Shown here: positions 1,916 through 27,204 of the stretch, piece after piece | How positions within the stretch are numbered: the stretch's first letter is position 1 | Layout of the letters: every line of letters begins with the position of its first letter | NCBI GenBank assembly: GCA_023053545.1 | Contig: JAKZAN010000004.1 | Coordinates: 4,836,001 to 4,900,000, forward strand | Source: Lepidurus packardi | Taxonomy: Eukaryota > Arthropoda > Branchiopoda > Notostraca > Triopsidae | DNA length: 64,000 nt | Direction of reading: 5' to 3' | Notes under the pieces: generated by a model | What the model saw: only the letters and a program-made list of their open reading frames with translations | The model's database searches: none | What the model was told of the DNA's origin: nothing | Made by a program: the position numbers and the translations under genes

Positions 1916-4900
1916 GTAAGTTTCCGTTTTGTTTTGTTTTTTAGGAGGGGGTCGAATTGAGCACATGTTCACGATTTTTTGTTTGCATTGGCACAGAACC
2001 GGTTGTGTATGAGAAACCACCTCCATGCAACCCATCACCTTGCGGAACGAACGCGATCTGTAGGGAACAAAATTCTGCAGCTACGTGCTCATGTCCGGAG
2101 AATTATATCGGAGACCCTTACTCGAGCTGCCGACCAGAATGTACCGTTAATAGCGACTGTACACGTGACCGCAGTTGCGTGAGAAACAGGTGTGTGAACC
2201 CTTGTCCAGCCTCGTGCAGTCAAAACGCTGATTGTCGAGTTTCTTCACATCTACCCATCTGCACCTGCAGAACTGGATACACCGGGGATCCTTATGGTGA
2301 TACATGTCGACCGATCGTTGTATCCACAAGTAAATACTCATTTTAAATTTTATCCGAAAAGCTTCTTTAAATTCCCAGAGTACTTTCCCTCTTTCTTAAG
2401 TGTATCAAACTGGCTGTTAATTTAAAATTTTTATCATTTTTAGCTCAACGACCCGAAGATCTAAATCCTTGCAGTCCAAGCCCGTGCGGTCCCAACAGTG
2501 TCTGTCGACAGGTAGGAGAACGTGCGGCTTGTAGCTGTCGACCAGGGTATCTGGGAAGCGCTCCTAACTGTAGACCAGAGTGTATTTCCAACAACGAATG
2601 CGATCTTACGAAGTCCTGCAAATTGGACATTCAGAAGTGCGTCAATCCATGTGAAGGACTTTGCGGTACTGGCGCTGAATGTATTGTTCGCAATCATTTG
2701 CCCATTTGCCGCTGTCCACAGGGTTACCAAGGCGATCCTCTTGATAGATGCAGAGGTAAACTAGCCTTGACGAAGGGTGTCTCAGAAAAAAAGTTTAATG
2801 CTTCCTGTCTTTTAATCTTTTCACTCAAACAGATGTACTTGGGATTTCGACAGAGAGACCTCCAACACATTTGAACACATGCATCCCAAGTCCGTGTGGG
2901 CCCAACTCGGTATGCCAAGTTTCGGACACAAGGGCAGTTTGCTCTTGCCAGCCAGGAATGCTTGGAGTCGCTCCTGAATGCAGACCAGAATGCCTTACCA
3001 ACGACGATTGCATACCATCCCAAGCTTGCGTTAACCAGAAGTGTAAAGATCCCTGCGCAGGAGTATGTGGCGCCAACGCTGATTGCCGGGTAGTTAATCA
3101 CAATCCAGTTTGCCACTGCAAAGCTGGATATGATGGAAACGCGTTCGAAGGATGCCAAGAAATCCAGCATGTTACTAGTAAGAATATACCTTTTAAAGTA
3201 CTTTTTATTTTCTTACTGTTATGTTCAAACAACGTTCACCTTACAGGTCCCTCAGTCTATCAACCTTCTCCATGTGATCCGTCACCGTGTGGAACAAACG
3301 CTCTCTGCAGAGAACAAAACAACGCTGCAGCTTGCTATTGTCCTGAAAATTACATCGGCGATCCTTACTCAAGTTGCAGACCGGAGTGTTCAGTTAACAG
3401 CGATTGTAATCGTGACCGTAGCTGCGTCAAGAATCGTTGTGTGAATCCTTGTCCCGAATCCTGTGCCGAGAACGCTGAATGTCGAGTTTCGTCTCATTTG
3501 CCTATCTGTACCTGCAGATCGGGTTACAGCGGAGATCCTTACGGAACTTCGTGCCGCGTTGTTGCAGAAACGAGTAAAATTCATCATATCCTTGTCCGTA
3601 AAACGATTGTATCATGGCATTATTTCTTGAATTGTAGGTACAAGACCACAAACGCCAGAAAATCCTTGCAATCCTTCTCCGTGTGGCCCCAACAGCGTTT
3701 GCCGACCAGTTGGAGATCGAGCAGCTTGCAGCTGTCAACCTGGATACCTGGGCAATGCTCCTAATTGCAGACCGGAATGCATTTCAAACAACGAATGCGA
3801 CTCTACGAAATCTTGCAAGCTTGACGTACAAAAATGCGTTAATCCGTGCGAAGGACTTTGTGGTCCAGGGGCTGAATGCATTGTTCGCAATCACTTGGCT
3901 ATTTGCCGCTGTCCAGAGAGATATGAAGGCGATCCTTTTGAAAGATGCACGCGTAAGTGCTTGGAAAGTAAATATTCCAAGCTGGTTTGTAATCCCTTTA
4001 AACTTCTTACAGAAGCAGTACTCGTGGACGATTCCACTCCTAGACCTAATATTGAAAACCCTTGCGTCCAAAGCCCTTGCGGTCCCAATTCAGTCTGTCA
4101 AGTATCAGGCACTAGGGCAGTATGCACTTGCCAAGCAGGAATGCTAGGAGTAGCTCCAGAGTGCAGACCAGAATGTCTTACCAACGATGACTGTAGACCA
4201 TCAGAAGCTTGCATTAATCGAAAATGTAAAGATCCATGCGCAGGGGTATGCGGTGCCAACACTAACTGCCGCGTAATTAATCACAACCCTATATGCCAAT
4301 GCAAAGCTGGGTATGAGGGGAATGCGTTTCAAGGATGCCAGCCGTTCCAAATCACTACCGGTAAATACACAACGATTCCGTCACGCCACTTTGATTTTAT
4401 AATTAACATTTTTAAAAACTTTTTGTCTTATTACAGAACCTGTATTGGTTCAACCGCCTCCTCCATGTGATCCGTCACCGTGTGGAACAAACGCTCTCTG
4501 CAGAGAACAAAACAACGCTGCAGCTTGCTATTGTCCTGAAAATTACATCGGCGATCCTTACTCAAGTTGCAGACCAGAGTGTTCAGTTAACAGCGACTGT
4601 AATCGCGACCGAAGCTGCGTCAAGAATCGTTGTGTGAATCCTTGCCCTGAATCGTGTGCCGAGAACGCTGAATGTCGAGTTTCGGCTCATTTGCCCATCT
4701 GTACCTGCAGATCGGGTTACAGCGGAGATCCTTACGGAACTTCGTGCCGCGTTGTTGCAGAAACAAGTAAAATTCATCATATCCTTGTTCATAAAACGAT
4801 TGTATCATGGCATTATTTCTTGAATTGTAGGTACAAGACCAGAAACGCCAGAAAATCCTTGCAATCCTTCTCCGTGTGGCCCCAACAGCGTTTGCCGACC

Positions 4901-7900
4901 AGTTGGAGATCGAGCAGCTTGCAGCTGTCAACCTGGATACCTGGGTGATGCTCCTAATTGCAGACCGGAATGCATTTCAAACAACGAATGCGACTCTACG
5001 AAATCTTGCAAGCTTGACGTACAAAAATGCGTTAATCCGTGCGAAGGACTTTGCGGTCCAGAGGCTGAATGCATTGTTCGCAATCACTTGGCCATTTGCC
5101 GCTGTCCAGAGAGATATGAAGGCGATCCTTATGAAAGATGCACGCGTAAGTGCTTGAAAGTAAATATTCTAAGCTGGTTTGTAATCCCTTTAAACTTCTT
5201 ACAGAAGCAGTACTCGTGGACGATTCCACTCCTAGACCTAACATTGAAAACCCATGCGTCCAAAGCCCTTGCGGTCCCAATTCAGTCTGTCAAGTATCAG
5301 GCAATAGGGCAGTATGCACTTGCCAAGCAGAAATGCTGGGAGTAGCTCCTGAATGCCGCCCGGAGTGTCTTACGAATGATGATTGCCGACCGGCTGAAGC
5401 TTGTATCAACCGCAAATGTAAAGACCCTTGTGCGTCGGTGTGCGGCGTCAACGCGGATTGCCGTGTGGTCAATCACAACCCTGTTTGCCACTGCAAAGCT
5501 GGGTATGAAGGAAACGCGTTTGAAGGATGCCAGCCGTTCCAAATTACAACCGGTAAATACACACGTTTTTAGTCACGTCAGTTTGATTTCATAATTAACA
5601 TTTTCGAATACTTTTTGTCGCATTACAGAACCTGTATTGGTTCAACCACCTCCTCCATGTGATCCGTCACCATGTGGTACGAATGCCGTCTGCAAAGAAC
5701 AAAACAATGCTGCAGCTTGCTATTGTCCTGAAAATTACATCGGCAATCCTTACTCAAGTTGCAGACCGGAGTGTTCAGTTAACAGCGACTGTCCTCGTGA
5801 CCGTAGCTGCGTCAAGAATCGTTGTGTGAATCCTTGCCCTGAATCGTGTGCCGAAAACGCTGAATGTCGAGTTTCGGCTCATTTGCCCATCTGTACCTGC
5901 ATATCGGGTTACAGCGGAGATCCTTACGGATCTTCGTGTCGCCTTGTTGCCGAAACAAGTAAATTCATCATATGCATGTCCATAAAACGATTGTATCATG
6001 GTGTTTTTCTTCAATTGTAGGTACAAGACCACAAACGCCGGAAAATCCTTGCAATCCTTCTCCGTGTGGTCCCAACAGCGTTTGTCGACCTGTCGGAGAC
6101 CGCGCCGCTTGCAGCTGCCAAACTGGATATCTTGGAAATGCTCCTAATTGTCGACCAGAATGTATTTCCAACAACGAATGCGATGCCACAAAGTCCTGCA
6201 AGCTCGATATTCAAAAATGCGTCAGTCCGTGCGAAGGACTTTGTGGTCCGGGTGCTGAATGCATTGTTCGCAATCATTTTGCCATTTGTCGCTGTCCACA
6301 GGGTTACGAAGGCGATCCTTTTGAAAGATGCACACGTGAGTGATTCTGTGTAAATATCTTAAGCAAATTTATAAAATCTCCAACTTCCTGTAACAGAAGC
6401 AGTAAAAGAGGAAAGCACCCCGAAACCTGAAAATTTAAACCCTTGCCTGCCAAGTCCTTGTGGCCCCGATTCTTCCTGTCAAGTTTCCGGAACTCGTGCA
6501 GTTTGTTCTTGTCAAGACGGAATGCGAGGAGTTGCTCCCGAATGCCGACCAGAGTGTATTACGAATGATGATTGCCGACCGGCCGAGGCGTGTATCAACC
6601 GCAAATGTAAAGACCCATGCGCATCTGTGTGTGGCGTCAACGCGGATTGCCGTGTGATCAATCACAACCCTGTTTGCCACTGCAAAGCTGGGTATGAAGG
6701 AAACGCGTTTGAAGGATGCCAGCCGCTCCAAATCGATCCCGGTAAATACACAACTTTTTACGTCACGTCAGTTTAATTTTATAATGAAAATTTTGTCATA
6801 CTGTTTGTCTTATTACAGAACCTGTATTGGTTCAACCACCTCCTCCCTGCGATCCGTCACCATGTGGTACGAATGCCATCTGCAGAGAACAAAACAACGC
6901 TGCAGCTTGCTATTGTCCTGAAAATTACATCGGCAATCCTCACTCAAGTTGCAGACCAGAGTGTTCAGTTAACAGCGACTGTCCTCGTGACCGTAGCTGC
7001 GTCAAGAATCGTTGTGTGAATCCTTGCCCTGAATCGTGTGCCGAGAACGCTGAATGTCGAGTTTCGGCTCATTTGCCCATCTGTACCTGCAGATCGGGTT
7101 ACAGCGGAGATCCTTACGGATCTTCGTGTCGCCTTGTTGCCGAAACAAGTAAATTCATCATATGCATGTCCATAAAACGATTGTATCACGGTGTTTTTCT
7201 TCAATTGTAGGTACAAGACCACAAACGCCGGAAAATCCTTGCAATCCTTCTCCGTGTGGTCCCAACAGCGTTTGTCGACCTGTCGGAGACCGCGCCGCTT
7301 GCAGCTGCCAACCAGGGTACCTGGGCAATGCTCCTAATTGTAGACCCGAATGTATTTCCAACAACGAATGCGATCCATCGAGGAACTGCAAGCTTGACGT
7401 CCAAAAATGCGTCAATCCGTGTGAAGGACTCTGCGGTCCAGGCGCTGAATGTTCAGTTAGGAACCATTTAGCCAGTTGTCGTTGTCCAGAGGGTTACGAG
7501 GGCGATCCGTTCGATAAATGCACGCGTAAGAAACCTATCTTTTCTCTTAAAATAACAATAATTGAATGAAATGCATTAAAGCAGTATATGTATCGGTGTT
7601 TTCTTGGCTGTTTTTCTACTTAAAATTTACCAACGTTTTGTCCAAATTTTGTGTAGAAGCTGTTGTAGTTCCCATCTCATCCACATCACCAACTACCCCT
7701 TCAAACCCTTGCGTACCAAGTCTTTGTGGACCCAATTCCATTTGCATAGCATCGGGTAATCGTCCGGTTTGCACGTGCATGGCTAACATGATTGGTGTAT
7801 CACCCGAGTGTCGTCCGGAATGTCTTAACCATGACGATTGTTTGCCGTCTGAAGCATGCGTCAACCAAAAATGCAAAGACCCTTGCGCAGGAAGCTGCGG

Positions 7901-17897: not shown

Positions 17898-19400
17898 TAA
17901 TGCCAAACGTAGATGTTAGGAAGTGTCGCCAAGGTTAACGTCACTGGAAACCTTAGCTTTTTATGTTAGTTTTTTTAACCCGTCCTCTCATCTCCCATCT
18001 ATTTCCCCATATGAAACGTAACCAATAATTGGTCATTCGGTTTGGTTTATGTGCTTCATTTTTCTTTTTTTAAAAACTATGAAACGCGATTCAGATGAAA
18101 CGCACTGCAGATGCAATTGCTTTAATTTGTGATTTAATGAGAGAAGAGAGAGGGGAGGGACCTAGATTTCTGCGCTGAAGGACTCTGGGAATCGGCACTG
18201 ATCGATGTACAGTTTTGCGAAGCTGAATTCTCACAGTTCGCAGGGCAGATCCAGTGACGTCATGGTAACTCTCCTGCTGCCTTCAGCTTGAAAGATGTAG
18301 GGCCCATTTCTCTTGTATTCAGTCAGTAGTGACTTGATCCAGCTAGGAAAAGTGAAATGTAGTTTAGCGTTGAATTTCCCAGGATCTTGGGGTTGATGCG
18401 CTTTTTAATTGTTAACCGCAGTAAATTCATGGTCTTCCGATTCATGGTCTTCTGCTGTCTTGTTTTGGTAAAAATTTTTAAGACTAAGCAAAACTCATAA
18501 GAAAAAACACATTACATTTACTGTTAACCCCTGGTGCTCTAATCTCTTTATACTTGTAACTGGCAGCCCAGTGCTTGTAGACGTTTTTTAAGTATACTAA
18601 AAGATAACGCCCGTTTCTTGGCGGAACCCTGTATAGCCTTCTATGAAAAATACATATTTGCAATAATCGTGGTTCATTTGATACAAAATTTAGAAGTAAT
18701 GGCAATTATTTGAAAAAAAATTGATGAAAAAATACTAATGGTTTTTGTAGTAATTTTCGGTGACATTGTTTTGACTTTTTCTTATCACCATGTTTTCGTT
18801 CTTACACCACCCGTGTGGTGGCATCAGAAGTCCATGCGGGGGTGCTCTCTACCTAAGTTTGTCCTTCCCAAGTATTTGCGGACCGTAAGTCCAGAAAAGA
18901 AAATGTTTGTTTAAAGAGGCCTAGGATGGGCAGGTTCGGCGTGCTCCGGTGTTTGCAAACGTTGACCCTAGGCCAGAGAACTTGTTGCCCCCCTCCCCTA
19001 CGTCTTACCCCTTGCAAAATTCCCTATAAAAGCTTATGTAAATATAAATATGCATTAGATGCATATAATGTATATACAAATATTATATGCGAATGTGCAT
19101 TATATGCATTATGCTTGTATAAATCCCTATAGCTTACTCTCTTTTTCGGGAGTCGTTTGTCAGAAGTCGAAGTGAGCCGAAGCCTAGCTAGTTGTTTTAA
19201 GTCAAACGAAGTCAAGCCAGGTGTTTGTTGTATTGAGCATCAATATGTTCAAGTTTATCCCGCAACAAGCGCGTTACCTTCAAGTCAAAGTTGTTTTAAC
19301 TCAAGATTTCATTCCCGATCCACCCCAGTCAGACACGTGGCATTTTATGGACTTGGGACATTGGGATCAACAAGTTTGTTGCCGCTGAACTGTTGTGCAC
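17898..19400. other. dpy 3' UTR and intergenic sequence
   Basis: No coding potential on either strand beyond short open frames. I found no canonical AATAAA within the first ~2 kb after the dpy stop, so the 3' end cannot be placed. At 19030-19125 there is AT-rich sequence with repeated TATGCAT-type words, probably simple repeat. Confidence 0.5.
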
Positions 19401-19423
19401 CCAGAAGCACCCCTATAAAAACG

Positions 19424-19458
19424 TCAGTTGCTCTCTAGCAAGCAGTCTTTGCGGACGT
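19424..19458 (+). promoter_or_regulatory. Consensus Inr + DPE core promoter
   Basis: TCAGTT at 19424-19429 matches the arthropod initiator TCAKTY, with A+1 at 19426. GGACGT at 19453-19458 matches the DPE consensus RGWYVT and lies exactly at +28 to +33. A TATA-like CTATAAAA at 19413-19420 is too close (about -12) to be the TATA of this start. A good 5' splice site (GAG|GTAAGA) follows at 19614/19615. The transcript would run into the inverted-repeat locus. Non-LTR and some LTR retroelements also use Inr+DPE promoters, so a mobile-element origin is possible. Confidence 0.55.
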
Positions 19459-19936
19459 GCTTTTCTTGAGCGATGTTCTTGAGCGATTTTTTTTAGTGAT
19501 TCCTTGAGTTAAACATTACCAATCGGATTAAGTGTTACCTACGAAAACTTCGAAACAATTCCTTATCGACGCGTAAGTCAACTTTTAGAAGCCTAGAGGG
19601 TTGGCGAAATCGAGGTAAGAGAACCTTTTTATTTACCAAAGTCGTTGTTTAAAACATAAAAGTTTAATTTTGAGGAAATTTTCCTTCCTTCTATTTTTTT
19701 TTATTTTTTCATGAAGATTGCAGAAAATTCAAACTACTCATTCTTATATTATTTTTTGTTGAATTTTTATGCTAAGATGAAGAAGTTTAGAGGAGTTTAG
19801 AGAGATTCAACAAATATTTTTGGTTGCAAAGAAAACGTCTGAAACGTGTAGTACTTATGTTTTTTTGTCACTGGATGTCTACAACGCGAATCTGGACAAG
19901 TTTTATCCTTCTCCAAAGTGAAGTGGTTTTCGTAGG

Positions 19937-20101
19937 GTACGAGAAGATTCACCACAGCCAAAACCTTTTTTACTAATCCTGTAAACTCACCACAACTGCC
20001 CTCTAGTGACAATTCCCCACAGTAAAATTCCCCACAGTTGGCTCCACAGCCAAAACCTGTTTTTACTAATCCTGTAAACTCACCACAACTGTTCTCTAGA
20101 A
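19937..20101 (+). repeat. Left flanking inverted repeat (with internal duplication)
   Basis: Contains the block GTACGAGAAGATTCACCACA, followed by CCAAAACC and TAAACTCACCACAACTG. The reverse complement of the same block occurs at 23590-23674. The left copy is internally duplicated: the CACAGCCAAAACC...CACCACAACTG part recurs at about 20045-20092. It abuts the left gene-derived arm directly, so it may be a terminal inverted repeat of a mobile element that enclosed gene fragments. Confidence 0.65.
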
Positions 20102-21093
20102 GAAAAGGCACTTATTAATACAGGGTCCTTAGGTGATTTACTTCCACCATTAAACGCTGCAATGTTTCCGCGAGGTTAAATCCATCTTCCAACCGCTCCG
20201 TAATGCCATTAAAATCTCGCTAAAAAAGTAAAAAATAAATAAAAAATGAGTATCTCAGAGGTGTCAAATAAAATATCTATTTACCTCAGCTATAATGCGG
20301 ACCATTGAGACGTCGAAAGTCACCCTGTGAAGTAGATCCCGAATGTCGCTTCTGGTCAGCCTCAAAGTTTCGCGGACTTCTTCATGCCTCTCTCGCATTT
20401 CTTGCTTGAACTCCTGGAATTCCTTGTAAAACGCCGCAAACTCTTGACCGGAACGCTGCTCTCGACTTCCAGCAGCTCCTGGCTCAGAACTTCCAGCTTC
20501 AGGGGTACGGCTCGTGTAATCCGACTCGTTACGTTCTGACGGTACATTGGCGTGCAGGGAAGGCGAAGTTTCCTCACTGGATCGGTTCACGTTTTGCAGT
20601 TGCATCAAATGGGGCATGAAGGATTGGAATCCCGCTATTGGAAGAACGACGACGTGTACCAGCGTTCAGGGATGAACGTCTTACCGGCGAAAAGGGTCCT
20701 AATGAAAAATTGAGACAATCCTCCACAAATAAGCTCGAATCTCTAGGTCGTGAGCCCAAACTGTCCCGAACGGGGGAGCATAACGAGTCAATCGGAGCTA
20801 TTAGGGAGGACGTCCGACGTGAGTTTCCAAGTACCAGGCGCTGGCGAATACTGAACGGGACTGAAAATACTCTCTGAAGCCTCGAAGCCATTCGAGTTTT
20901 CGGAAACTTTTGGAAAAGTGGTATCAGTCTTGGCGGGGGGCGCGGCTTGGGGTAGATTGCAGCTGAGCCACGAGATCTATTGAAACCGAAGTGAAGCGTG
21001 GCATTGGAGGTGGAAGGTACAATAGCAAAGGCGCTGGAATTAGAAGAGTTTAAGTTAGTGGCAGCATTCGGTTTGTTCCGTTCCAACCGATCG
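20102..21093 (-). repeat. Left arm of a ~1-kb inverted repeat (C-terminal half of a NEDD1-like gene)
   Basis: This segment is the near-identical reverse complement of 22266-23250. On the minus strand it encodes the C-terminal half of a protein with S-P motifs (FSPVRRSSLNAG) and a helical C-terminus (EFAAFYKEFQEFKQEMRER...; then RDFNGITERLEDGF) ending at a TAA at 20115-20117. The last intron (20220-20284, 65 nt) keeps a canonical GT donor, unlike the other arm. The minus-strand reading frame continues beyond the arm to about 21200 (KAPWVVKSIPAPSARPS), so the left copy retains more upstream coding sequence than the right. A frame change near 20620-20640 is shared with the right arm. Confidence 0.85.
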
Positions 21094-21225
21094 GGTGAAC
21101 CAGAACGTGAAATGCCTTTGGACTGACTGGCATTGAAGCTGTTCTTCAAGGAAGGTCGCGCTGAAGGAGCTGGAATGGATTTCACTACCCAAGGAGCCTT
21201 CCATAGAAGGCTACTTGGGTAGTGA
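20115..21225 (-). pseudogene. NEDD1-like C-terminal half, minus-strand copy
   Basis: Two exons, 20285 to about 21200 and 20115-20219. The reading frame running to about 20574 (through DATAKREPIQ) and the frame that starts with MPHLMQLQNVNRSS at 20617 overlap. No convincing intron joins them, so one frame change is needed. The protein has low-complexity Ser/Pro/Arg sequence followed by an amphipathic helical C-terminus, resembling the layout of NEDD1 (WD40 head, S-P rich middle, gamma-tubulin-binding helical tail). No WD40 exons lie upstream of it on this strand; it stops at the hairpin 21183-21224. It is therefore a 5'-truncated copy. NEDD1 homology of this half is tentative. Confidence 0.5.
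21183..21224. repeat. 42-bp near-perfect hairpin at the rearrangement junction
   Basis: A 19-bp stem (CACTACCCAAGGAGCCTTC against GAAGGCTACTTGGGTAGTG, one mismatch) with a 4-nt loop CATA. It sits where the minus-strand coding sequence of the left copy ends, and fits a fold-back or template-switch breakpoint. Confidence 0.8.
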
Positions 21226-21503
21226 GTCGTTTTGCCCCGGGTCGTTTTGAGCATGCGTCAAAATTTGAACCTCACGAGAAACGAAAAAAGTTTCGTTTAC
21301 GGTTTATTGTTTTATGTAAGAAAACTTCTTTCTTTCCTGGTTTGTGCAAAACTTTTCCTAGTTTGTGCAAAACTTTTTTTATAGTGTTCAAACTCGATTC
21401 AGGAGCTTTTCTTTTATCTATATACAACAGTGTCCAGTTTGAGTTTCATTGTTGGGAAAGAAGAAATCGTTCTCTCTATACGTATACATGCCCAAAAGAG
21501 ACC

Positions 21504-22207
21504 ATGGCAAGTTCAAACATCTTTGTTGCCTGCACTGGAAAGAATGTTTCAATATGGGACCGCAAAAACAACATCTTGAAGAATTTCGTTTAAATGGTAA
21601 GTTATTGCCCTTACTTTTCCAATCATATAGTTATTCACGTGTTGCATTGCATCCTTAGACGTTACAGTTCATACTAATACCATTTCTTCTCTTTTGTACA
21701 ATAGGTTCAATCACAGACGTGTCATGTAGTTCCAATGGAAAGCTCATAGCAGCCACGCTTGAGAACGAGTCGCATCTGCAGTTAATCGACGTCGAGAACT
21801 TAACTGTTCGTCCAGCCAGCATTCTTCCAGTACGTGCCGTATCAAATTAAAATTTATATCTGTTTGCATTTAACAAGGTTTTCTTTTAGACTCCTGTGAC
21901 TTGCGTCTCCTTTGTGCCCAAACAGACAGATCGAGTTGTCCTTGGTCAGGCGAACGGAAGCGTTTACGTCTGGGATTGCGCGAAGAGCAAAATCCAACAA
22001 AACTTCGCCGTTGTAAGTTTAAACCATTGTTATCTTCCGTCCAAACTCTCACGTTATTCTTACCAGACTCGCCGAGAAGGTGTGAGGAAAGTCCACTCCA
22101 ACGGTACATCGGTAGCAAGTGGACAGACGAATGGCATGATCTCCATCTTTGGACACCAAACCGGCCAACAGTTAACCCAATTACCTTGCCCGGCTGGCAG
22201 TTCTGCT
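21504..22207 (+). pseudogene. WD40 N-terminal exons of a NEDD1/Grip71-like gene, frameshifted
   Basis: Four exons, 21504-21596, 21705-21829, 21890-22012 and 22067-22207, with 54-108-nt introns. They encode FVACTGKNVSIWD, SITDVSCSSNGKLIAATLE, TPVTCVSFVPKQTDRVVLGQ with GSVYVWD, and SVASGQTNGMISIFGH, i.e. about the first three WD40 blades. Order and content resemble NEDD1 (compare its KIWD, VNIWD and YIASGSLSGEI segments). ATG 21504 has a good context (GACCATGG). Exon 1 is one base short: it runs into TAA at 21591-21593, whereas one extra T before 21591 would give VLNG and join exon 2 in phase 1. After exon 4 the donor GTAAGC at 22208 leads within 60 bp into the right arm, so the remaining blades are missing. 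I read this as a truncated, broken copy; an assembly error is the alternative. Confidence 0.6.
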
Positions 22208-22265
22208 GTAAGCAACCATTCCTTCCATTAGTGTAGTATTTACTCAATAAAACTTCGGTTCGGTT

Positions 22266-23250
22266 CGATCGGTTGGAACAGAACAAACCGAATGCTGCCA
22301 CTAACTTAAACTCTTCTAATTCCAGCGCCTTTGCAATTGTACCTTCCACCTCCAATGCCACGCTTCACTTCGGTTTCAATAGATCTCGTGGCTCAGCTGC
22401 AATCTACCCCAAGCCGCGCCCCCCGCCAAGACTGATACCACTTTTCCAAAAGTTTCCGAAAACTCGAATGGCTTCGAGGCTTCAGAGAGTATTTTCAGTC
22501 CCGTTCAGTATTCGCCAGCGCCTGGTACTTGGAAACTCACGTCGGACGTCCTCCCTAATAGCTCCGATTGACTCGTTATGCTCCCCCGTTCGGGACAGTT
22601 TGGGCTCACGACCTAGAGATTCGAGCTTATTTGTGGAGGATTGTCTCAATTTTTCATTAGGACCCTTTTCGCCGGTAAGACGTTCATCCCTGAACGCTGG
22701 TACACGTCGTCGTTCTTCCAATAGCGGGATTCCAATCCTTCATGCCCCATTTGATGCAACTGCAAGACGTGAACCGATCCAGTGAGGAAACTTCGCCTTC
22801 CCTGCACGCCAATGTACCGTCAGAACGTAACGAGTCGGATTACACGAGCCGTACCCCTGAAGCTGGAAGTTCTGAGCCAGGAGCTGCTGGAAGTCGAGAG
22901 CAGCGTTCCGGTCAAGAGTTTGCGGCGTTTTACAAGGAATTCCAGGAGTTCAAGCAAGAAATGCGAGAGAGGCATGAAGAAGTCCGCGAAACTTTGAGGC
23001 TGACCAGAAGCGACATTCGGGATCTACTTCACAGGGTGACTTTCGACGTCTCAATGGTCCGCATTATAGCTGAGGCAAATAGATATTTTATTTGACACTT
23101 CTGAGATATTCATTTTTTATTTATTTTTTTAGCGAGATTTTAATGGCATTACCGAGCGGTTGGAAGATGGATTTAACCTCGTGGAAACATTGCAGCGTTT
23201 AATGGTGGAAGTAAATCACGTAAGGACCCTGTATTAATAAGTGCCTTTTC
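22266..23250 (+). repeat. Right arm of the inverted repeat (C-terminal half of a NEDD1-like gene)
   Basis: Near-identical reverse complement of 20102-21093. Only scattered substitutions are visible, a few of which change residues (K/R, N/D, V/A, R/Q). On the plus strand it encodes the same Ser/Pro-rich then helical C-terminus, with exons ending at 23074 and resuming at 23133-23237 (TAA 23235-23237). The donor at 23075-23076 is GC where the other arm has GT. Homology to the left arm stops abruptly at 22266 (CGATCGG), about 60 bp after the last WD40 exon, which does not splice in frame to it in any obvious way. Confidence 0.85.
22273..23237 (+). pseudogene. NEDD1-like C-terminal half, plus-strand copy
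   Basis: Same coding content as the minus-strand copy and carried on the same strand as the WD40 exons at 21504-22207, so it looks like the rear half of that broken gene. The first open frame (to 22785) and the frame from ATG 22742 overlap. Translation through the helical tail needs the second frame. The final intron 23075-23132 has a GC donor and TTTTAG acceptor; if spliced, AE|RDFNGITERLEDGF is restored. An AATAAA at 23780-23785 could serve a plus-strand transcript. Loss of most WD40 blades and the frame changes argue against a functional NEDD1. Confidence 0.5.
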
Positions 23251-23589
23251 TCGTCATTTCGTGTCCTTTTGTGTAAATTACGTGCCTTCATTACAAGAGA
23301 ACTTTAATGAGATTTTAAGATTTTTGGAAATTTAGTTTAGTTGTAAGTTAGTACTAAATTTATAAGTATTGTATTTCAAGTATTTAACTGGAATGGGTTT
23401 TGTTAAGTAAGTTAAGATTCTAGTAATAAGTTGGTTAAAATGGATCTCAGTGGATTAGGAAGTTAATTCAAGGAGAGATTACAAACTACAACTCGTTTTG
23501 TGTTACAAACTAGGGGAGTGGAGGAAGGCTTTAAGGTGGGTTTCCCCACTATGTCAGTATTCAATGATCACACTGTGGTGAATTTTTGT

Positions 23590-23674
23590 GTGGGGAATTG
23601 TCACTAGAGAACAGTTGTGGTGAGTTTACAGGATTAGTAAAAACAGGTTTTGGCTGTGGTGAATCTTCTCGTAC
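23590..23674 (-). repeat. Right flanking inverted repeat
   Basis: Reverse complement of the block at 19937-20101 (GTTGTGGTGAGTTTACAG, AAACAGGTTTTGGCTGTGG, CTTCTCGTAC). It lies ~340 bp outside the right arm, whereas the left copy abuts its arm. Together the pair bounds about 3.7 kb. Confidence 0.65.
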
Positions 23675-25996
23675 CCGTTTTCGTACGTCTTCTGCTTTCA
23701 CACTCGTTTTGGGGTGCTTTCTTCTGCGGATGTGTTTGTGGGGCCTTTACGCTTATTTCTAAGTTTTGCACGCTTTGTTAATAAAATGATTTCATGCGTA
23801 CTGATTTATTTCTCTCTAATAGTTTTCCGTGGCGAAATGAAGGTGAAGAGGAACACCCAACCCTGCGCCAAGAGGTAAACATCTACTTCCGACCCTGACG
23901 TCAGTTTAAAGGTCATGAGGAGCTTCGGAGTGATGGTAGTAACACTTTGTAGAGTTACGTATAAAAGTTAGAAAAGATTGTTTAAAATTTATCTAATAGT
24001 TGAATAGTATAGATGCGTACTAATTAAAGGAATATAACAGATCCCTTCAACTCGATATGCCATTGGCTCCTGAGAGGGTTGGAAACATGTCATTCTTCTG
24101 TCAAAGACTCCGTGTGTCTACTGCCAAGGTCATACCGCGGCCAAGATTATATTTATTGGATTCTGCAGTTTTAACGCTGGAAGAATTGTGTGCCAAATGT
24201 GTGACTGCGCCGATCTCTTGCTAGTGTATTCTGCCACGTCTTTAAAGGAATTGCAGACCTAATTATTTTCCATAGGCGTTATTTAACGTTCGTGGCTTTC
24301 TGATTGGGAATACAGAAAGAGAAAACTACTGAACCCCCCTAATATGATACCTTGCTGCTTTCACGTACCAGTGGATCTTCTGGCCATGAATCTGATGGTT
24401 TCTGATGCAGTTCTAGTCAAATCAGGCTTCAAGCTTATCTTTCATCAATTATTTAAGGTTGTTGTAAAGGTTATTTATTTAAAACGTGTTTCCATTTCAA
24501 GTTTTAACCCTTCCAACTGAACTGTTGTACTTCAAGGCAAGGTTGGGGAATTTGAAGGGTCCTGATGTTCAGCACATCTGCTTTATAGTTCGACTTCGTG
24601 TATTATTTTAAAAGTTTTGAGAACAGAATAGAATTGTAACGCTTGTTTTTCCAGTTTTTGTGCTTTTTAAAATGTGTTCCTCCCAAACATGCACTAGCAC
24701 TCAGTTGTCCAAACTGTGGGATTTTTTGCTACCTTTTGTTAGCTCCAAAAATTAGATTGTAAAATTATGCAAATGAGACCTTTTCCTTCCCCGCGGAAGC
24801 TTATTTGCTTATTTGTTGTACCCAAACGTTCCCATAAAACTTGTTTTTTATTGTACGATTTGTATTTCTTGAAATAAAAGCCAAAATTTTGAAAATTTGT
24901 GCGTGATTTTTGAAAAATCCGCGAAAAGGGGTGTGACCTCAATAAAATGGAGGAATGTTATTGGTGGATCGGACCAAAAAGGGGGCGTGGTTTCTTTTCG
25001 ATCTAGAAAAGCGTTTTCTGGGCTTTTTTCCATAAGGATCCCTGCACGATCAAGAGGGTCCCCTTCAAAAATCGTCAAAAATTGAGAGCCTCGCCCCTTT
25101 CTCTGTTCCCAACTCCCCTGCTCGGTTTCCCATCCCCGATATTCGAGCTCGTGATGCCGAGGCTTCACGAATTCAAATATGGGTGTTGGGAACCTTGAAC
25201 GGAAAAGCATAAGGTACAGAGAAAGGAAGCCATTCAATATTTCGTTTTTTCAACGAAATAAAGTGCCTCAACCAAGTTTCGAACCGAGAACCTCTCGTTC
25301 CAAACGCTTACGCCTTATCCACTTGGTCATAAGCTTATATGTAATGATGCCCTGAACTTATATAAATATAACGTCTGAACAAAGCAGTGTAACGGTGTAC
25401 CACTCGGTGTGAGTAGCATTCATATTGTCTTCGATTTATAAAAATATGATGGTTCGCGTACAACCATCATGTCTATAACAATACCTTGTACTCCAGAAGT
25501 TTGCATTATTATATTGTACTCTTCTGTATGTATTTTAAAATGTAATAAAAAATCCTTATTTATTTATTGTTTAAGAGTCAAAATCATTCACAATAAATTG
25601 CAGAGCAACGTGCTTGCTTTGAATTATTTTTGTTATAAGCTCACAAATGCAATACAATTTTTCAATGACAACCTATGGCTACTATGGACCGTAAACTTAA
25701 CTGTCACGTCCAGTAGGCTTGAACACACTATAAACAATGTGGAGGGCGCCAAATCCAAACAGCTAAGACATTTATCATAGGTTTTACGCACATCAGGCTT
25801 CAAACAAACTTCTGATCAATTACGGGTAAGTCCAGCCCTAATTTTCCCTAAGTAAATTAGAACAAAAGAAACCAAGGTTGTATTAATACTTATCGAAATA
25901 CTTTGCGTACAGTCATGTTATACATACAGCAATCATTATTCAGTAATAGTGTAATATTTCTAATATTACATGACTTCTATGTGTTTTATCTAGATT
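23675..25996. other. Intergenic, repeat-like
   Basis: No supported gene. AT-rich sequence with an AATAAA at 23780-23785. The block 24850-25240 has an open minus frame of 129 codons with low-complexity composition and looks like repeat-derived sequence rather than a gene. The tRNA-like element at 25264-25336 follows it. Confidence 0.45.
25264..25336 (-). repeat. tRNA-related sequence (SINE head or degenerate tRNA)
   Basis: On the minus strand, TGACCAAGTGGATAAGGC fits a pol III A box (class II tRNA type) and CGGTTCGAAACT a B box, spaced about as in a tRNA with a short variable arm. The T stem and acceptor stem pair poorly and I cannot fold a convincing cloverleaf, so a tRNA-derived SINE or decayed tRNA is more likely than a working tRNA. 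Confidence 0.45.
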
Positions 25997-26054: not shown

Positions 26055-27204
26055 TTATAAAGACTCCTTTTTGAGAAGCGCAGCAACATACAGCCACACA
26101 TAAACGGCTAGGCTAGGATATGGATGCACATAAACCGCAAGAGCAAACTCCACACTTGGATCACTATGCCGATGTAGCCCTGTCGAATACAACATGTCTC
26201 CAATAACTTCCACATCGGTAACTCCCGTTTCCATAGGAAATCCCCACATCTAAAATTATAACTTTCGTTATTTACGTAAACAAATTATCCATAACAGTTT
26301 ACACCTTGTACGGACTTAGAAGAGCTCGTAACTCTTGCACGGAATCATTGTCAATGGCAGTTCCTTCAGATCGAGACAACTCTAAGCGCGGAAGAAACTT
26401 CCTCAATAACGTGCCACAATGCCGATTCCATCTTGTCCTGTGCGGCGAAATTCAAAAACAAATTAAATCTGTTCTTGTATTATCCATAGCTAAACATACC
26501 TTCGATTCTTCCTCCAGCCCATGAAAGCTTCTTTCATTTTACGTTCCAATCGTTCTTGTAGCTCTTGGACCCACTTAGTGTGTGGTACGCTGAAAGTTAA
26601 CTCCGTCGCCGCCTGTATACCGACAGAGGGCTTAATCAACTGGCGCCCGAAAAGTGGTCTCCAATCCGTAACTCGGCTAACATCATACCTCAAGAGGCCA
26701 GGATGTACTTGAACCTGAACATTCAGCCAAAACTTCACCCAGAAGACGTTACTAAGGATCTTAGCAAAACTTTACTGAAAAACTTACGTTGTCTGCACTA
26801 ACTAGAGCAAAGACTTTCTGTAGTGGACAGAGGCTATCATTTATTGGCAGCCGTTGACCAGTTACGGCATTGAAAAGCCACCACTCATTACGGACTTGCA
26901 GATGAACCAGCACATAAGCTGTGCTGCCTTCGGGTAATCCCAAGCCCAGTACCAAGTAGCATTTCCACTTCATCGCTAGGAAGAAATTAGCGAGCAAAAT
27001 AGCATGCTCCTCTTCATCGCCACATAGCATTTCTAAAAATTGCTAGCGATACAGAAATCATTAACGGAATTCTGGAAAGAGCCTTAACTACCTCCGAGTG
27101 TGCCCAAATATCTAGAGGTCCCATAAATATCCTGCTATCAGAAATGCAGGGTATAGCAGAAACAAATCGTGCCAGTTTTCCCATTGCAATACTAGGATTG
27201 TCAT
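26055..27204 (-). other. Cc2d2a: CC2D2A C-terminal transglutaminase-like domain
   Basis: Five exons encode [59 protein letters not shown] and [13 protein letters not shown]. These correspond to the C-terminal domain of CC2D2A, which published structural work describes as a transglutaminase-peptidase-like fold that is probably inactive; I cannot judge activity here. The acceptor at 27043 is preferred over one at 27033 because only it joins in frame (HSE|QFLEML). The acceptor at 26733 gives DN|FWLNVQ, equal in length to the human segment. Confidence 0.85.

What the first reader, a model, noticed from the sequence alone, without database searches (positions are those of the whole stretch)
19424..23785. 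Candidate hairpin-RNA locus made from a broken NEDD1-like gene
A consensus Inr+DPE promoter reads into ~0.99-kb inverted arms separated by ~1.17 kb. Both arms carry the C-terminal half of a NEDD1-like gene, and an AATAAA follows at 23780. A read-through transcript would fold into a long dsRNA with gene-derived arms, the architecture of arthropod hpRNAs that feed the siRNA pathway and silence the parent gene. The near-identity of the arms fits either recency or selection for pairing.
Basis: partly seen in the sequence, partly recalled or inferred. Interest (0 to 1): 0.78.

Follow-up and report, generated by a model that had tools for sequence, protein, structure and literature searches.

The report
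Transposon carrying mirrored NEDD1 gene pieces
A cut-and-paste transposon in an animal genome carries a broken cell-division gene with part of it present twice in mirror image, so any transcript through it would fold into a long hairpin; whether that ever silences the real gene is untested.

Summary
In detail: two arms (20101-21093, 22266-23251; 976 of 986 aligned bases identical), 1172 bp apart, carry the C-terminal part of a NEDD1-like gene. It belongs to a multi-copy family in which two 4.2-kb members hold a MULE (Mutator-like) transposase domain. Four of four fetched relatives of the surrounding repeat lack it. So this is a non-autonomous Pack-MULE-like element. An intact 795-aa NEDD1 gene sits elsewhere, without this transposon. 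Two other loci share the same gene/transposon junction. Both arms share a 104-bp deletion and eight substitutions absent from the other copies that align there, so one arm was copied from, or homogenised with, the other after capture. The Inr+DPE match lies in the surrounding repeat and is not above chance; the AATAAA is in none of the four relatives. No compensatory change is seen. The predicted RNA folds into a stem of about 1 kb, and a quarter to a third of its 21-mers match NEDD1 mRNA exactly. hpRNA function is possible but unsupported. Most likely: a by-product of transposon repair, at most a mobile proto-hpRNA.

The parts
19935..23676 (.). Non-autonomous MULE (Pack-MULE-like) insertion, 3742 bp
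   Evidence: TIR ends GGGTACGAGAAGATT..., exact 9-bp TSD; 50 matching termini in the genome, 0 in the reversed-pattern control; MULE transposase domain in two 4.2-kb family members
19926..19934 (+). Left target-site duplication GTTTTCGTA
   Evidence: one copy fits better in 3 of 4 relatives of the host repeat
23677..23685 (+). Right target-site duplication GTTTTCGTA
19935..20099 (+). Left terminal inverted repeat with an internal near-duplicate unit (20044-20099)
   Evidence: 94% over 105 columns to the right end; multi-copy in the genome
23513..23676 (-). Right terminal inverted repeat and subterminal part
   Evidence: 90% to L042 element positions 4058-4218; multi-copy
20101..21185 (-). Left arm: inverted copy of NEDD1 C-terminal coding sequence, last intron and stop region, with a 104-bp exonic deletion
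21182..21225 (.). Fold-back junction: 44-bp imperfect palindrome (91%) of NEDD1 upstream sequence at the inner end of the left arm
   Evidence: self-comparison; upstream sequence shared with L018
21204..22255 (+). 5' flank and exons 1-4 of NEDD1 in sense (exons about 21504-21600, 21705-21829, 21890-22012, 22067-22207); exon 1 frameshifted with an early stop
   Evidence: 90.7-95.0% to L016, L018 and L015; gene model of L018; exon limits and frameshift read by eye
22256..22265 (+). Junction of an internal deletion of about 1 kb of the gene (rest of the WD40 region)
   Evidence: The stretch between L018 5419 and 6459 (L015 6426 and 5304) is missing here
22266..23251 (+). Right arm: NEDD1 C-terminal part in sense, same 104-bp deletion (join at 22716-22728)
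23252..23479 (+). NEDD1 3' flank, not duplicated in the left arm; gene match to L018 and L016 ends at 23476 and 23480
23480..23512 (+). MULE subterminal sequence; junction with the gene shared by L015 and L017
   Evidence: 33 of 33 identical to L042 element 3855-3887
19370..19934 (+). Left half of the dispersed repeat that received the insertion, including the Inr/DPE-like match (A+1 = 19426)
23677..25340 (+). Right half of the same dispersed repeat, including AATAAA at 23780

Best explanation
The locus is a non-autonomous Mutator-like DNA transposon (a Pack-MULE-like element). An ancestor joined a NEDD1-like gene, introns included, to MULE end sequence; three loci share that junction (shown for the 3' side of the gene; capture of the whole gene between two TIRs is inferred). 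The captured gene then decayed: 104-bp exonic deletion, about 1-kb internal deletion, frameshift in exon 1. Part of its 3' half was copied in inverted orientation next to the left TIR. This was probably template switching with a fold-back during gap repair after excision or replication (inferred from the palindromic junction and the shared deletion). The element inserted into an older dispersed repeat, making the 9-bp TSD (shown). Its default state is a neutral or mildly harmful transposon copy. If a promoter outside it reads through, the RNA would fold into a stem of about 1 kb that Dicer could cut (inferred), making it at most a mobile proto-hpRNA.
For: Exact 9-bp TSD and TIRs. 50 family termini against 0 in the control. 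PF10551 MULE domain inside TIR pairs C35:329702-333919 and C35:239668-243885 (E 1.5e-7 in L042:6244-6534). TSDs of 8-9 bp exact in 6 of 13 paired rows. Flanks continuous without the insertion in 4 of 4 fetched relatives of the host repeat; a single TSD copy fits better in 3 of 4. The intact 795-aa gene in L018 has no match to the MULE element. Same gene/MULE junction in window, L015 and L017. Both arms share a 104-bp deletion that L015, L017 and L018 lack, and 8 substitutions not in the copies aligned there. Palindromic breaks in window and L017.
Against: Seven of 13 paired rows show no exact TSD (several are nested or wrongly paired ends). One of 4 relatives, L048, fits two TSD copies slightly better than one (300 against 293). 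L015 shows no TIR match in the 10 kb fetched and L017 only one TIR, so their spread by transposition is not shown and segmental duplication remains possible. The transposase in L042 is in pieces and was not shown to be active. The repair mechanism is inferred only. Seven of the 10 arm differences lie in the outer 160 bp (131 of 20000 random draws reach this), so the inverted copy may be older with later gene conversion inside. A diverged second NEDD1 gene was not excluded, because that search did not complete.
Confidence: 0.85

Rival explanations
1. A working hpRNA gene: read-through from the surrounding repeat makes a long hairpin RNA, Dicer cuts it, and the siRNAs lower NEDD1 expression.
For: Predicted fold -2722 kcal/mol with 999 of 1085 left-arm bases paired within 22200-23300; 247 of 966 right-stem and 340 of 1065 left-arm 21-mers identical to the L018 mRNA model; Dicer-dimer domain at one locus and 16 Piwi-domain matches; [quoted passage not shown]
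Against: No expression data; promoter motif not above chance and inside a dispersed repeat; AATAAA absent in 4 of 4 relatives; AATAAA motifs in the outer left arm could end the transcript early; no compensatory change among 10 arm differences, though power is low; silencing a mitotic gene would be expected to be costly (general knowledge).
Confidence: 0.1
2. A Mu killer-like silencer: the hairpin's outer stem contains the TIRs, so its siRNAs would act against the MULE family rather than NEDD1.
For: 106 of 166 left-TIR bases pair with the right end in the predicted fold; Mu killer in maize is an inverted duplication of MuDR sequence with a hairpin proposed to come from read-through of a flanking gene (PMC3440606, abstract read).
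Against: The arms carry NEDD1, not transposase sequence; only terminal and subterminal sequence is shared with the transposase-coding element, as in any TIR element.
Confidence: 0.03
3. The inverted arms are an assembly or chimeric-read artefact.
For: Long inverted repeats can come from fold-back reads (general knowledge); raw reads were not available.
Against: Arms differ by 10 substitutions and a 7-bp indel, with changes on both sides; 1172-bp spacer; element ends, TSD and empty sites are coherent.
Confidence: 0.03

Closest known systems
Pack-MULEs (rice; Muta1 derivatives in Aedes aegypti; Ssk-FB4 in Drosophila)
   Same: MULE TIRs, 8-9 bp TSD, host-gene sequence between the TIRs, a transposase-coding partner with the same termini
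   Different: Carries much of a gene including introns and the gene's own 5' flank, plus an inverted second copy of about 1 kb of it. PMC8277862 (abstract and passages) found no Pack-MULE in 100 animal reference genomes but calls Ssk-FB4 Pack-MULEs; PMC5225508 (passages) describes mosquito MULE derivatives with host-gene fragments
Mu killer (maize)
   Same: Inverted duplication of MULE-related DNA with a hairpin proposed by read-through from outside (abstract of PMC3440606)
   Different: Mu killer's arms are transposase sequence and silence the transposon; here the arms are a captured host gene and no RNA evidence exists
Drosophila hpRNA loci (hp-Nmy, hp58, hp-tHMG and others)
   Same: Inverted arms derived from a protein-coding gene, young
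   Different: hpRNAs are annotated from Dcr-2-dependent siRNAs and primary transcripts (PMC10317233, passages); none is shown here, and this one lies within a DNA transposon
[quoted passage not shown]
   Same: Inverted copy of a gene that could become the target (PMC10004981, passages)
   Different: Plant pathway; no transposon vehicle needed; here no small RNA shown
Foldback (FB) elements
   Same: Likely MULE-related, long TIRs, 9-10 bp TSDs (as given for FB4 in PMC8277862)
   Different: The long inverted arms here are captured gene sequence lying inside the TIRs, not the TIRs themselves

Membership tests
MULE (Mutator-like) superfamily, non-autonomous | TIRs matching an element with a MULE transposase domain | tested here: met
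   Termini shared with L042 element; PF10551 in it
MULE (Mutator-like) superfamily, non-autonomous | 8-10 bp target-site duplication | tested here: met
   Exact 9 bp at the window element; exact 8-9 bp in 6 of 13 paired rows; single copy fits 3 of 4 empty sites better
Pack-MULE | Host-gene sequence between TIRs, with a parental-type copy elsewhere | tested here: met
   Intact NEDD1 at G000:C3:11532694-11535557 without a match to the MULE element
Pack-MULE | Inserted as a unit | tested here: met
   Empty site in 4 of 4 fetched host-repeat relatives
Pack-MULE | Further copies spread by transposition | tested here: inconclusive
   Junction shared with L015 and L017, but no TIR pair or TSD seen there
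hpRNA locus | Long inverted repeat able to fold as RNA | tested here: met
hpRNA locus | Transcript across both arms | not testable with these tools
   No RNA data held; promoter motif not above chance
hpRNA locus | Dicer-dependent 21-22-nt siRNAs and target derepression | not testable with these tools
   No small-RNA data; Dicer and Piwi domains exist in the genome
hpRNA locus | Selection to keep pairing (compensatory changes) | tested here: inconclusive
   10 arm differences, none compensatory; too few for power
Mu killer-like locus | Arms made of transposase sequence | tested here: not met
   Only terminal and subterminal sequence is shared with the transposase-coding element

The most novel reading that the evidence does not exclude
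A MULE can build and move an hpRNA gene in an animal: it captures a host gene, duplicates part of it in inverted orientation during gap repair, and delivers the hairpin to a new site where an outside promoter expresses it, giving trans-silencing of an unlinked parent gene. This would be a DNA-transposon route for the birth of hpRNAs far from their targets.
Probability: 0.1. Interest if true: 0.8.

Novelty: new variant of a known kind. Interest (0 to 1): 0.48.

Why it matters
Pack-MULEs are well known in plants and less often reported in animals. One with this much of its record (an intact parental-type gene, transposase-coding partner, TSD, empty sites, other loci sharing the capture junction) and an inverted second copy of the cargo shows steps by which a transposon could make a gene-targeting hairpin. 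The hpRNA paper PMC10317233 (passages) calls the origin of hpRNAs an ongoing conundrum, above all for those distant from their targets, and names mobilisation of the locus as one option. This locus makes that option testable with small-RNA libraries.

Tried and rejected
Solo-LTR reading of the flanks: considered because the flanks hold promoter-like and poly(A)-like motifs; dropped because the two flanks are parts of one longer repeat and not direct repeats of each other. What the host repeat is remains unknown.

Merlin (IS1595) superfamily, which also makes 8-9 bp TSDs (recalled): the 3 PF12762 hits do not lie within the TIR places. P and hAT types were not tested.

THAP fragment in element L030 as a second captured host gene: rejected, because its interior is itself a many-copy repeat (56 matches).

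The 104-bp gap as an intron: rejected, because it is in-frame coding sequence in L018 and aligns without break in L015.

Compensatory change or selection for pairing: none seen.

A first Inr+DPE count used a spacing wrong by one base and is dropped; one search has the right one.

Search for a diverged second NEDD1 gene by protein: not completed, so open.

Literature (listings, capped): Pack-MULE with animal (20 of 115 listed), hairpin RNA with Mutator-like and others (15 of 98), hpRNA origin (15 of 20), Mutator-like with Daphnia, Mu killer (8 of 9), Pack-MULE with small RNA, NEDD1 with Daphnia, Pack-MULE with hpRNA (one plant review, passages read), captured gene with inverted duplication (10 of 33). 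In these listings I saw no animal MULE with an inverted captured gene; only open-access PMC papers were searched. Daphnia was my guess at the kind of animal; the species is not known.
Full report
OBSERVATION. The inverted arms are real: 20101-21093 against 22266-23251, with 1172 bp between. By MAFFT, 976 of 986 aligned bases are identical, with 10 substitutions and one 7-bp indel. The strict Inr+DPE pattern occurs twice on both strands of the 64 kb, against a mean of 3.15 in 20 Markov sequences of the same composition, so it carries little weight.

WHAT THE INSERTION IS. Searching the genome (108.6 Mb, 344 contigs; the window is G000:C3:4836001-4900000) showed that 19935-20099 and 23513-23676 are multi-copy terminal repeats. 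The ends read GGGTACGAGAAGATT... and ...AATCTTCTCGTACCC, flanked by an exact 9-bp duplication GTTTTCGTA at 19926-19934 and 23677-23685. A degenerate pattern of this terminus finds 50 places with up to two mismatches, and its reversed control none. Of 13 rows where I paired two ends, six have an exact TSD (9 bp in the window and L031; 8 bp in L030, L032, L036, L042). The other seven do not; several of these are nested or wrongly paired ends. Two TIR pairs on contig C35 (239668-243885 and 329702-333919, about 4.2 kb each) enclose matches to the Pfam MULE transposase domain PF10551, which has 63 matches in this genome in all. In L042 the frame 6244-6534 scores E 1.5e-7. So the window element, 3742 bp, is a non-autonomous Mutator-like element. 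The transposase frame is in pieces (introns or decay), and activity was not tested.

WHERE IT INSERTED. The flanks 19370-19934 and 23677-25340 are one older dispersed repeat. In all four relatives that I fetched (L048-L051) the two flanks are continuous, without the insertion; many more relatives were listed and not fetched. In three of the four (L049, L050, L051) flanks joined with one copy of the 9-bp duplication align better than with two (scores 236/227, 240/231, 209/204); in L048 two copies align slightly better (293/300). The Inr/DPE-like match therefore belongs to the repeat that was hit. Relative L049 has CCAGTT and AGACG at the corresponding places; L050 and L051 keep less. AATAAA is not kept at that place in any of the four (AATGAA, AATGAA, AATTAA, gap). 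What kind of repeat this is I could not tell.

THE CARGO. DNA search found five NEDD1-like loci: the window, L015 (C4:957-961 kb), L016 (C4:1219-1223 kb), L017 (C1:3617-3618 kb) and L018 (C3:11532-11536 kb). L018 reads as seven exons and 795 aa without a stop, and its best solved-structure hits are NEDD1. L016 has a tandem partial duplication and a large deletion. L015 has ATA for the start codon and, if the frame is kept, TGA at codon 762. The window copy has a frameshift in exon 1 (read by eye), lacks about 1 kb of the middle of the gene, and lacks 104 bp of coding sequence in both arms. L018 and L016 have no match to the MULE element, whereas L015, L017 and the window change from gene to MULE subterminal sequence at the same place (window about 23476-23480). 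One joining of gene and MULE thus lies behind at least three loci. Against a simple transposition story for the other two: L015 shows no TIR match in the 10 kb fetched and L017 only one TIR, so those copies may be truncated or may have spread by segmental duplication. Arms differ from L017 by 1.8%, from L015 by 2.6-2.9%, and from L018 by 5.5-5.7%. Against L018 the right arm has 22 synonymous and 22 non-synonymous single-change codons, the left arm 23 and 21, which fits one constrained and one decaying branch but is not a formal test. Whether L018 itself or a lost relative was the donor is open.

HOW THE INVERTED ARMS AROSE. Both arms share the 104-bp deletion, which L015, L017 and L018 lack (L016 has lost that region altogether), and eight substitutions not seen in the two or three other copies aligned at each site. 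So one arm was copied from, or homogenised with, the other after capture. The left arm holds 92 bp more of the gene than the right. Its inner end meets a 44-bp imperfect palindrome of NEDD1 upstream sequence (21182-21225). L017 also ends in a 42-bp inverted self-match (95%) at its break. These fold-backs suggest template switching during repair (inference). Of the 10 arm differences six are changes of the right arm and four of the left (one of these four is shared with L016); none is compensatory. The 7-bp indel is ambiguous: the right arm and L015 lack the bases, the left arm, L017 and L018 have them. Seven differences lie in the outer 160 bp, a clustering reached in 131 of 20000 random draws. 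This fits gene conversion of the inner part, or an older copy event; it gives no sign of selection for pairing.

CAN IT WORK AS A HAIRPIN RNA. A transcript from 19426 to 23800 would fold at -2722 kcal/mol, with 999 of 1085 left-arm bases paired within 22200-23300 and 106 of 166 left-TIR bases paired within 23500-23680. Of 21-mers, 247 of 966 in the right stem and 340 of 1065 in the left arm are identical to the L018 mRNA model. The genome has a Dicer-dimer domain at one locus and 16 Piwi-domain matches, counted exon by exon. So the hpRNA reading is physically possible. Against it stand the promoter match that is not above chance, the non-conserved AATAAA, three AATAAA in the outer part of the left arm, and the cost expected from silencing a mitotic gene (general knowledge). 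Without RNA data I put active silencing at about 0.1.

COMPARISON. It meets the tests for a Pack-MULE. PMC8277862 (abstract and passages) found no Pack-MULE in 100 animal reference genomes but says that the fly Ssk-FB4s represent Pack-MULEs. PMC5225508 (passages) reports mosquito MULE families with 8-9 bp TSDs, TIRs over 100 bp in 12 of 14, and derivatives with host-gene fragments. Mu killer (PMC3440606, abstract) is the closest in architecture: an inverted duplication of MULE sequence with proposed read-through from outside; but its arms are transposase sequence. PMC10317233 (passages) states that where hpRNAs come from is an ongoing conundrum and names mobilisation of the locus as one possibility. 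My searches (listed, with their caps, in Tried and rejected) showed no animal MULE carrying an inverted host-gene copy.

On re-reading my calls I added, corrected the TSD and AATAAA statements, marked the missing TIRs of L015 and L017, and corrected two side notes.

Noticed in passing
L026:3306-4659 and 5446-6800 (C4:1211306-1214800): A second inverted duplication: 1358 bp at 98%, each arm holding most of a short MULE of this family, about 5 kb from the NEDD1 pseudo-copy L016.
   Followed up: partly
L034:3720-4546 and L035:4425-5253 (C4:989 kb and 997 kb): An inverted pair of 829 bp at 99.4% that includes one MULE end in each arm; a further 487-bp pair between the same two loci (98.8%) is in direct orientation.
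   Followed up: partly
G000:C4:6876392 (L038) and C4:6886754 (L039): Left and right MULE ends about 10.4 kb apart flanked by the same 8 bases (atttttgt): perhaps one long element with a nested copy (read by eye).
   Followed up: no
L030:3303-5171 (C5:11224303-11226171): A MULE of this family (8-bp TSD ATTTCAAT) whose interior codes a THAP domain (PF05485, E 1.7e-13) and is itself a many-copy repeat: a nested element.
   Followed up: partly
L017:6268-6309: 42-bp inverted self-match (95%) at the point where the captured NEDD1 piece ends, another fold-back break.
   Followed up: no
L016 (C4:1219-1223 kb): NEDD1 copy without a match to the MULE element, with a tandem partial duplication and a large deletion.
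   Followed up: no
window:26490-27042 (-): CEP76 peptidase-like domain (PF24656, E 2.8e-20 in 26761-27042): another centrosome or cilium gene close to the insertion (role recalled).
   Followed up: no
window:459-17605 (+): Frames of a long Dumpy-type EGF/DPY gene with a cuticlin/ZP end (PF21164, PF25057).
   Followed up: no
window:54799-55362 (-): Helix-loop-helix protein (PF00010, E 2.3e-9), possibly extramacrochaetae/Id-like (name recalled).
   Followed up: no
G000:C35:329702 and C35:476333: Two MULE ends on one contig with the same 15-base left flank, so the region may be segmentally duplicated.
   Followed up: no
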